DNA of 64,000 bases, taken from assembly GCA_947470805.1 (NCBI GenBank), contig CANIVU010000017.1:1-64000 (forward strand), read 5' to 3'. Every line of letters begins with the position of its first letter. The stretch's first letter is position 1. The notes below the pieces were generated by a model that saw only the letters and a program-made list of their open reading frames with translations, searched no databases and was not told where the DNA came from. Source of the DNA: Acidobacteriota bacterium (GTDB lineage: Bacteria; Acidobacteriota; Terriglobia; Bryobacterales; Bryobacteraceae). The translations under genes were made by a program, and so were the position numbers. Below are positions 26,651-27,883 of this stretch, piece by piece.

Positions 26651-27598
26651 TCACCGGCGGGCGAAGGTGGGGAGTTTCACCATGTCGTCGGCGGGAACGC
26701 CTTCGAGTGGGAGGCCGGCCTTTTTCCACGCGTTGAGGCCGCCGCGAATGACGCGGGCATCGAAGCCTTTTTCTCTGAGTATATGCGCCACACGGGCGCT
26801 GGTGGCTTCGCTGTTTCAAGTGCAGTAGAGATAGATTTTCTCGGCCTCCGGAAGGGTGGCGATGGCGTCGGGGAGGCGGTTGGGTTCGAGGCGCTGGGAG
26901 CCCAGGATGCGTTGGGAATGGACGTCGTAGTAGCCGTGGGAGCGGACGTCGAAGACGGGGCCGTCGACATCGGCGGAGTCGACACGGGGGACGGCGCGGT
27001 AGACACGCGACTTCCAGGTGAGCCAGAGGCGATAGGTGACCCAGGCGAGGAAGGCCAGGAAGAGTACAAATTCGATGACGTTACCGGCGCGGCCCATGGT
27101 GTCGAGTAGGGTGGCGAGGAGGTCACGGAAGGCGAAGCCGACGCCGATATAGGCACCGACGTAGAGGATGATGCCGGCCAGATCGAGGAGGAGAAATTGG
27201 GCGAAGGGCATGCGCATGGAGCCGGCCAGCGGCGGGGCCATGGTGTTGAGACCGGGGACGAATTTGGCGAAGACGAGGACGGCGCGGCCGCGGCGGTAGA
27301 AGGCTTCGGCGGAGGTGAGGATGCAGGAGTCCGGATTGGTGGAGACGCGGCAGAGAATGCCGAGGAGCCACCAGCCGGTGTTGCGGCCGAGGAAGAAATA
27401 AATGACATCGCCGAGGAGGAAGGCGGCGATGCCGGCGAGGAGGGCGTTGCCGAGGGCGAGTTTGCCAAGGGCAACGAGGGCGCCGGCGGTTAGCAAGGCG
27501 ACGGCGGCGGGCACGGGGAGGCCGAGGGCTTCCACCAGACAGAGTGCGAAGAGGAGCCCGGCGCCGTGACGAGAGAGTGTTTCGGCCCAGTTCCCCAT
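26651..27598 (-). CDS. DedA-family membrane protein fused to rhodanese domain, with in-frame TGA (candidate selenoprotein)
   Basis: Residues 1-185 are a DedA/SNARE-associated membrane protein (GLPVPAAVALLTAGALVA, FLGRNTGWWLLG, FAKFVPGLNTMAPPLAG). A rhodanese domain starts near 205 (VFDVRSHGYYDVHSQRI). The frame meets TGA at 26816-26818 directly after IYLYCT, then stays open for 54 codons reading NSEATSARVAHILREKGF, VIRGGLNAWKKAGLPLEG and on to a second TGA at 26651-26653. That is the rest of the rhodanese fold. In homologues as I recall them the active loop is Cys-x-Cys followed by Pro/Asn-Glu-Ala/Val-Ser, so the TGA replaces the second Cys. Selenocysteine insertion would give 315 residues. 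A nonsense mutation or sequencing error would leave a truncated 260-residue protein. Confidence 0.75.
26761..26818 (-). promoter_or_regulatory. Candidate bacterial SECIS hairpin directly after the in-frame TGA
   Basis: Downstream of the TGA (26816-26818), GCGCC (26799-26795) pairs with GGCGC (26789-26785) around the 5-nt loop CGTGT. The apical loop begins 22 nt after the TGA and has G at its second position, which matches the loose rules for bSECIS elements (loop about 16-37 nt downstream, G in the first two loop bases). A longer stem, CGAAGCC (26810-26804) with GGCTTCG (26767-26761), can enclose it. A competing hairpin GCCAC/GTGGC is also possible. Folding was judged by eye only. Confidence 0.5.
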
Positions 27599-27640: not shown

Positions 27641-27883
27641 CTAGTATTCATACCAATCCGAGTGGGCCGACCAGCCCTTGCACTGGTGGCACTGGGTGGA
27701 GTGCCATTGCTTGACGCAACCGGGGCAGACGCCGCCGGTGTCGAAGGTGTGCCATTCGTGGCCGCAGAGGCAGCCCCAGAGTTCGTCACTCGGGGGTTCC
27801 CAATCGCAGAGGGGGCAGCGGATACGCGGGCCGGTGAGGCAGGACCCGATGCCTGATTTCTCGTCTGTGATGACTTGGCTCAC
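27641..27883 (-). CDS. Small Cys/His-rich zinc-ribbon-like protein
   Basis: 80 residues from a GTG start. It holds four metal-binding knuckles: RCPLCDW, GCLCGHEWH, VCPGCVKQWH and QCHQCKGWSAH, spaced to bind two zinc ions in a zinc-ribbon or RING-like arrangement. Tryptophans follow most knuckles. No catalytic motif is visible. It is divergent from the sugar isomerase gene and shares a short upstream region with it. Function unknown; a protein- or nucleic-acid-binding adaptor is the likeliest guess. Confidence 0.65.
   Translation of the reverse strand: MSQVITDEKSGIGSCLTGPRIRCPLCDWEPPSDELWGCLCGHEWHTFDTGGVCPGCVKQWHSTQCHQCKGWSAHSDWYEY

What the first reader, a model, noticed from the sequence alone, without database searches (positions are those of the whole stretch)
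26651..27598. In-frame TGA at the active site of a DedA-rhodanese fusion: candidate selenoprotein
Directly seen: the frame reads Ile-Tyr-Leu-Tyr-Cys-Thr, then TGA, then 54 further codons that complete the rhodanese fold (ATSARV; LREKGF; GGLNAWKKAGLP) to a second TGA 15 nt before the next gene. Known: the rhodanese active loop uses Cys, and related DedA-rhodanese proteins as I recall have Cys-x-Cys at this point. Sec replacing the second Cys is chemically sensible, since Sec typically replaces redox or nucleophilic Cys. Inference: Sec is inserted. Codon choice after the TGA remains GC-rich at third positions, so the downstream frame looks under selection.
Basis: partly seen in the sequence, partly recalled or inferred. 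Interest (0 to 1): 0.92.

Follow-up and report, generated by a model that had tools for sequence, protein, structure and literature searches.

The report
DedA-rhodanese membrane selenoprotein
A soil bacterium's membrane protein very probably reads an internal "stop" signal as the rare amino acid selenocysteine at its active site, as dozens of relatives do, so reading the gene by the standard code would cut this protein short.

Summary
Confirmed; the selenoprotein reading is strongly supported. The minus-strand frame 27598-26651 is a DedA/VTT-rhodanese fusion interrupted by TGA at 26816-26818 (LYC-T-[TGA]). The genome has tRNA-Sec, SelA, SelB and SelD. In 116 homologues (103 genomes) this codon is TGA in 72, Cys in 38, Ser in 5, Gly in 1, never TAA/TAG. 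Among copies in genomes at least 90% complete, 58 of 58 TGA and 29 of 38 other copies have SelB or a strong tRNA-Sec hit. A hairpin 21 nt after the TGA fits the published bacterial SECIS model; stem plus G[G/U] loop is in 70 of 72 Sec and 1 of 38 Cys copies. Sec lies two residues after the usual rhodanese Cys, not in its place.

Cys-x-Sec rhodaneses and DedA-rhodanese fusions are each described; I found no description of the combination in the library searched. The DedA half differs too: an Arg present in 20 of 20 rhodanese-free homologues sampled is gone in 116 of 116 fusions, and a Cys pair is gained. Function is inferred only: Sec-assisted persulfide/thiol chemistry at the membrane, with a regulatory sensor as a serious rival. 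Selenium incorporation has not been shown.

The parts
26651..27598 (-). DedA-rhodanese selenoprotein gene read through the internal TGA (315 residues plus stop)
27137..27514 (-). VTT/DedA membrane domain, residues 29-154
   Evidence: PF09335, 37.3 bits against cut-off 33.9
27323..27352 (-). C83-x8-C92, Cys pair in the DedA half (C83 in 116 of 116, C92 in 112 of 116 homologues)
   Evidence: both Cys in 1 of 20 rhodanese-free DedA homologues sampled
26717..26974 (-). rhodanese domain, residues 209-294
   Evidence: PF00581, 35.3 bits against cut-off 22.2
26822..26824 (-). C259, the usual rhodanese active-loop Cys by alignment
   Evidence: alignment to 6mxv; Cys in 115 of 116
26816..26818 (-). in-frame TGA, read as selenocysteine 261
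26785..26799 (-). bacterial SECIS-like hairpin: GCGCC stem, CGUGU loop, GGCGC; loop begins 21 nt after the TGA; -9.1 kcal/mol
   Evidence: model constraints from a figure legend in PMC13188914
26651..26653 (-). terminal TGA, ordinary stop
27641..27883 (-). small Cys-rich ORF (GTG start; zinc-ribbon-like by my reading, no family search), 42 nt upstream on the same strand; possible operon partner
   Evidence: found in 7 of 30 loci searched, namely the window and the 6 other same-genus copies of its subgroup

Best explanation
The gene encodes a membrane selenoprotein. SelB and tRNA-Sec, guided by a bSECIS hairpin inside the coding sequence, insert selenocysteine at the TGA, giving a C-x-U loop in a rhodanese domain carried by a divergent DedA membrane domain. 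Well supported by comparative sequence: Sec insertion. Inferred only: C259 takes up a sulfane sulfur (persulfide) or forms a mixed disulfide; Sec261 resolves it through a selenenylsulfide; and the partner or target is the Cys pair C83/C92 of the DedA half, making it a membrane persulfide/thiol redox unit rather than an undecaprenyl-phosphate flippase of the usual kind. The confidence below is for Sec insertion; I put the redox-relay mechanism at about 0.4.
For: tRNA-Sec 72.1 bits over the cut-off of 47, anticodon tca; SelB 376.7 bits; SelA 478.9 bits; SelD 365.3 bits with its own in-frame TGA in GUASK. Site codon in 116 homologues: TGA 72, TGC/TGT 38, Ser 5, Gly 1, no TAA/TAG. Copies in genomes at least 90% complete: TGA 58 of 58 with SelB or strong tRNA-Sec (E at most 1e-10, my line), non-TGA 29 of 38, Fisher p=1.3e-4. 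Complete SECIS stem 70 of 72 Sec, 6 of 38 Cys (p=2.5e-19, not corrected for relatedness); stem plus G[G/U] loop 70 of 72 against 1 of 38. Synonymous redraws: mean 3.8, maximum 11 of 72 in 1000 draws; for the window's own copy a complete stem in a fraction 0.0001 of 20000 draws. On a quick tree the TGA label needs at least 16 changes, 8 forced by starred branches. C83 116 of 116, C92 112 of 116; position 118 Arg in 20 of 20 rhodanese-free DedAs sampled, 0 of 116 fusions. AlphaFold model, mean pLDDT 89.1.
Against: No protein or selenium data. One TGA copy (G123) has neither SelB nor a strong tRNA-Sec hit, though that genome is 64% complete; 6 more TGA copies lie in genomes without a SelB hit but with a strong tRNA-Sec, and 7 in genomes with SelB and only a weak tRNA-Sec hit. 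34 of 44 non-TGA copies lie in genomes that do have the machinery, so machinery alone does not decide the form. 2 of 72 Sec copies (L035, L047) lack the full stem. The stem was picked out from folds of these same sequences, so it leans towards them, and related copies are not independent; Cys copies also have more complete stems than their redraw (6 against 1.7 expected). The wider 71-nt stretch folds no better than shuffles (z -0.59, 50 of 200 as good). For the mechanism: no coordinates were at hand to measure C83/C92 to C259/261; the Ser and Gly copies suggest that the second chalcogen is dispensable in some lineages; 1 rhodanese-free DedA has the Cys pair too.
Confidence: 0.95

Rival explanations
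1. The TGA is a real stop (or a sequencing error or a decaying gene): a 260-residue DedA protein with a cut rhodanese is made and the tail is a relic.
For: Table 11 stops there; the wider 71-nt stretch folds no better than shuffles.
Against: TGA in 72 of 116 homologues and never TAA/TAG; tail dN/dS 0 to 0.38 in 15 of 21 pairs; hairpin far above synonymous redraw in Sec copies; Sec machinery present.
Confidence: 0.02
2. The TGA is read through, but as Cys, Trp or another residue rather than Sec.
For: Any read-through residue explains the conserved tail; Cys forms exist in relatives.
Against: TGA copies track SelB/tRNA-Sec; the hairpin meets all four bSECIS constraints quoted in PMC13188914; tRNA-Sec has anticodon tca.
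Confidence: 0.02
3. Function rival: the C-x-U rhodanese is a redox or persulfide sensor that regulates whatever it is fused to, here a DedA transporter.
For: The same SECIS-bearing domain is fused to Na+/H+ exchangers (10 of 15 other long fusions scanned, of 18), trypsin-like proteases (4 of 15) and, in L184, a weak cyclase-like domain.
Against: The DedA half has its own conserved Cys pair and lost an Arg that rhodanese-free DedAs keep, which suggests a change in chemistry, not only in control.
Confidence: 0.3
4. Function rival: uptake or delivery of selenium or sulfur oxyanions, the rhodanese taking a perselenide from reduced selenite brought in by the DedA half.
For: A DedA-selenite link is the title of Ledgham 2005 (seen only as a reference in PMC10127716); rhodanese perselenide from selenite and GSH is cited in PMC10298544 (passage).
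Against: 10 of 44 non-TGA copies lie in genomes without SelB and without a strong tRNA-Sec hit, where delivery of selenium for Sec has no purpose; SelD was not sought in those genomes.
Confidence: 0.1

Closest known systems
NF041203 rhodanese_LYCAU; 'rhodanese-like domain-containing protein form 3' (CxU) in PMC13188914
   Same: Rhodanese domain with C-x-U; closest NCBIfam model to the window protein (61.1 bits); 2 of 3 stand-alone copies scanned that carry the same SECIS pattern pass its cut-off (L149 143.9, L161 118.2; L150 77.9 does not).
   Different: The window protein and 5 of 5 other DedA fusions scanned (73.4 to 95.4 bits) fall below its 115-bit cut-off; that model is a 126-position rhodanese domain without a membrane part.
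DedA (COG0586)-rhodanese fusions, PMC10127716; PA1209 of Pseudomonas aeruginosa, PMC12893004
   Same: Same two-domain architecture; the first paper calls the connection of the rhodanese to undecaprenyl phosphate unclear (passages).
   Different: PMC12893004 has no word beginning 'selen'; in PMC10127716 I sought only 'selenite', found once in a reference. Whether their proteins have the C-x-C loop or the Cys pair was not tested.
Undecaprenyl-phosphate flippases of the DedA family (UptA)
   Same: VTT domain by profile.
   Different: Scores 40.8 bits against a cut-off of 250 (NF052604); Arg130/Arg136 of YghB, described as essential in PMC10127716 (passage), correspond by my motif and spacing reading to K112 and to N/S/G/D/A at 118.
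TsoB, rhodanese/DsbD fusion-like selenoprotein (NF045694)
   Same: A rhodanese selenoprotein described as joined to a DsbD-like part (listed in PMC13188914).
   Different: Motif UxxxxU and a DsbD-like partner; not among the window protein's 8 NCBIfam matches at E up to 1.

Membership tests
Bacterial selenoproteins | In-frame UGA with conserved coding sequence on both sides | tested here: met
Bacterial selenoproteins | Homologues with Cys at the UGA position | tested here: met
   38 of 116 Cys
Bacterial selenoproteins | bSECIS: loop 3-9 nt, stem 4-16 bp, G in the first two loop positions, 16-37 nt from the UGA, MFE at most -7.5 | tested here: met
   loop 5 nt, stem 5 bp, G at loop position 2, 21 nt, -9.1 kcal/mol; constraints from PMC13188914
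Bacterial selenoproteins | tRNA-Sec, SelA, SelB, SelD in the genome | tested here: met
Bacterial selenoproteins | Selenium in the protein | not testable with these tools
   needs 75Se or mass spectrometry
NF041203 CxU rhodanese | Rhodanese domain with C-x-U | tested here: met
NF041203 CxU rhodanese | Score at or above the curated 115 bits | tested here: not met
   61.1 bits
DedA undecaprenyl-phosphate flippase (COG0586) | VTT domain over the Pfam cut-off | tested here: met
   37.3 against 33.9 bits
DedA undecaprenyl-phosphate flippase (COG0586) | Two basic residues (YghB Arg130, Arg136) | tested here: not met
   first is Lys in 116 of 116, second never Arg in 116; rhodanese-free DedAs have Arg at the second in 20 of 20; correspondence by motif and spacing, no YghB sequence was aligned
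DedA undecaprenyl-phosphate flippase (COG0586) | Conserved acidic residues that bind protons | tested here: inconclusive
   E23 in 100 of 116 and D64 in 116 of 116; that these are the acidic residues meant is recalled, not aligned
DedA undecaprenyl-phosphate flippase (COG0586) | Flipping of undecaprenyl phosphate | not testable with these tools
   needs an assay
Rhodanese (PF00581) | Cys of the active loop | tested here: met
   C259 aligns with the loop Cys of 6mxv; its catalytic role is recalled

The most novel reading that the evidence does not exclude
A new class of DedA protein that no longer flips undecaprenyl phosphate: its membrane half has traded the phosphate-binding Arg for a Cys pair and works as one unit with a Cys-x-Sec rhodanese to move or reduce sulfane sulfur or disulfides at the membrane.
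Probability: 0.35. Interest if true: 0.8.

Novelty: new variant of a known kind. Interest (0 to 1): 0.62.

Why it matters
It appears to add a membrane architecture to the selenoproteome, found here in Acidobacteria and in records titled Rokuibacteriota, Myxococcaceae, Pseudomonadales, Gammaproteobacteria and Eremiobacterota. Under the standard code the protein ends at the UGA, so I expect ordinary annotation to cut it short (no annotated record was checked). It also gives the published question of why some DedA proteins carry a rhodanese a concrete handle: a C-x-U loop, a new Cys pair and a lost Arg, each testable.

Tried and rejected
Pseudogene, sequencing error and plain read-through were rejected on the codon counts, dN/dS and hairpin. 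A second Sec at the terminal TGA was rejected because homologues end in all three stops. One search flagged TAA or TAG inside some homologues; none lies at this site. Gene neighbourhood gave no clear function: a polyprenyl-synthetase-like ORF (my reading of the translation, no family search) lies about 1.3-3.5 kb upstream on the same strand in 12 of 43 DedA-fusion loci, but the loci shown are from one acidobacterial subgroup and it could be inherited order. Distances between the Cys pair and the C-x-U loop could not be measured, as no coordinates were available.

Rows dropped and limits: of 118 homologue loci taken, L148 (cut by the contig end) and L147 (misaligned) were left out of the 116; other partial or low-scoring hits (a capped list) were not fetched, except 20 rhodanese-free ones. 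The tRNA-Sec search of 201 genomes used stricter filters that lose weak matches. 11 of the 31 genomes without SelB are not named; I got them by subtraction.

Absence in print rests on searches of a CC-licensed PMC library only: plus term searches inside PMC13188914, PMC9312934, PMC2398784, PMC1794560, PMC5029168, PMC12013277, PMC1088965, PMC10298544, PMC10127716 and PMC12893004. Of these ten I saw passages (and abstract and outline of PMC10127716); of other papers only search listings with abstract starts. No paper was read whole.

Full report
Observation. The minus-strand frame 27598-26651 gives 315 residues with TGA at residue 261 and a terminal TGA at 26651-26653. Pfam finds a VTT/DedA domain (29-154) and a rhodanese domain (209-294) that runs across the internal TGA.

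Machinery. The assembly holding the window (8.7 Mb, 220 contigs, 100% complete, 3.1% contamination) has one tRNA-Sec over the Rfam cut-off (72.1 bits, anticodon tca; 9 weaker hits fall below it), SelB (376.7 bits), SelA (478.9 bits) and SelD (365.3 bits); SelD carries its own in-frame TGA in GUASK.

Homologues. P0001 matched 177 of 201 genomes searched. I took 118 loci (30 returned by the search, 88 fetched by place); L148 is cut by a contig end and L147 is misaligned, leaving 116 DedA-rhodanese copies in 103 genomes. At residue 261 they have TGA 72, Cys 38 (TGC 22, TGT 16), Ser 5, Gly 1. None has TAA or TAG there. SelB passes its cut-off in 170 of 201 genomes; tRNA-Sec in 180 of 201. Taking SelB or a tRNA-Sec hit at E at most 1e-10 as machinery (my line), 71 of 72 TGA copies and 34 of 44 others lie in genomes with it (Fisher p=2.4e-4); for genomes at least 90% complete the counts are 58 of 58 and 29 of 38 (p=1.3e-4). 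The one exception is G123, 64% complete. 10 genomes hold both TGA and non-TGA copies.

Selection and tree. In the 7 same-genus copies of the window's subgroup, dN/dS downstream of the TGA is 0 to 0.38 (15 of 21 pairs computable) and upstream 0.05 to 0.28 (19 of 21). On a quick IQ-TREE tree of 116 rows the TGA label needs at least 16 changes, 8 of them forced by starred branches; the root and so the direction are not known.

SECIS. Folds of each Sec and Cys copy showed a recurring hairpin in the Sec copies. In the window it is GCGCC-CGUGU-GGCGC at 26785-26799, loop starting 21 nt after the TGA, -9.1 kcal/mol, inside the constraints quoted in PMC13188914. The complete 5-bp stem is in 70 of 72 Sec and 6 of 38 Cys copies; stem plus G[G/U] at loop positions 2-3 in 70 of 72 and 1 of 38. 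With synonymous codons redrawn from each copy's own usage, complete stems average 3.8 of 72 (maximum 11 in 1000 draws); for Cys copies 1.7 of 38 expected, 6 seen. Pair 22-32 changes from G-C to A-T in three related copies (L040, L041, L043), a change on both sides. Limits: the stem was chosen from these sequences, and copies share ancestry. The wider 71-nt stretch folds no better than shuffles.

Beyond the close relatives. By my own HMMs 116 of 117 encode a rhodanese: 43 DedA fusions, 48 short rhodaneses, 18 other long proteins, 7 cut by a locus edge. DedA fusions occur in records titled Acidobacteria, Rokuibacteriota, Myxococcaceae, Pseudomonadales, Gammaproteobacteria and Eremiobacterota, among others. 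Of 15 of the 18 other long ones scanned, 10 have a Na+/H+ exchanger, 4 a trypsin-like protease, 1 only the rhodanese.

Anatomy. C259 aligns with the active-loop Cys of a solved rhodanese (6mxv) and is Cys in 115 of 116; Sec is two residues later. In the DedA half C83 is Cys in 116 of 116 and C92 in 112 of 116; among 20 rhodanese-free DedA homologues sampled both occur in 1 (L285, with no rhodanese found in the 7 kb stretch taken around it). Position 118 is Arg in 20 of 20 rhodanese-free proteins and never in 116 fusions (N 48, S 44, G 11, D 8, A 5). [quoted passage not shown] the match to K112 and position 118 is by motif and spacing, not by aligning YghB. AlphaFold on a 26-row alignment gave mean pLDDT 89.1 and pTM 0.79; the 50 PDB matches that Foldseek listed are mainly rhodanese structures by title.

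Reading. Sec insertion at residue 261 is about as well supported as comparative sequence can make it. The function is open. The C-x-U loop and the gained DedA Cys pair suggest persulfide or thiol redox work at the membrane (about 0.4). That the same domain is fused to exchangers and proteases makes a regulatory sensor a serious rival (0.3). Selenium delivery is less likely (0.1), since non-Sec forms also occur in genomes where SelB and a strong tRNA-Sec were not found.

Known and new. CxU rhodanese selenoproteins are known (NF041203, listed in PMC13188914; passages), and DedA-rhodanese fusions are known (PMC10127716, PMC12893004; passages). The window protein scores 61.1 bits against NF041203's cut-off of 115. 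I found no description of the Sec-bearing fusion in the searches listed under Tried and rejected, which cover only CC-licensed papers. I therefore call it a new variant of a known kind.

Noticed in passing
L164, L167, L168, L191, L196, L218, L242, L251, L253, L264: C-x-U rhodanese with the same SECIS pattern fused to Na+/H+ exchangers; by title mostly groups I recall as Chloroflexi, L164 Gemmatimonadetes. In the one scanned with NCBIfam (L191), NF041203 scored 91.5 bits, below its cut-off of 115.
   Followed up: partly
L152, L175, L195, L256: The same Sec-rhodanese fused to a trypsin-like protease domain, all four in records titled Rokuibacteriota.
   Followed up: partly
L184:981-1994 (-): N-terminal C-x-U rhodanese followed by a weak guanylate-cyclase match (24.7 bits, cut-off 21.9).
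   Followed up: no
window 27641-27883 (-): Small Cys-rich, zinc-ribbon-like ORF upstream of the selenoprotein gene, found beside the window copy and the 6 other same-genus copies of its subgroup, 7 of 30 loci searched.
   Followed up: partly
L055 (G000:C8:33103-34020): The genome's SelD is itself a likely selenoprotein (GUASK), with a hairpin after its TGA (-21.4 kcal/mol for 50 nt, no shuffle control).
   Followed up: partly
L285/L286 (G177:C24): A DedA protein with the C83/C92 pair but no fused rhodanese, none found in 7 kb around it, and still with Arg at position 118: a possible intermediate.
   Followed up: partly
L144 (Gly); L132, L140, L143, L145, L146 (Ser): DedA-rhodanese copies with Gly or Ser at the Sec/Cys site; L140, L144 and L146 also lack C92, and L146 has Ser in place of C259. 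The Cys copy L141 lacks C92 too.
   Followed up: partly
12 of 43 DedA-fusion loci (e.g. L162, L188, L220): A polyprenyl-synthetase-like ORF about 1.3-3.5 kb upstream on the same strand; could be inherited gene order.
   Followed up: no
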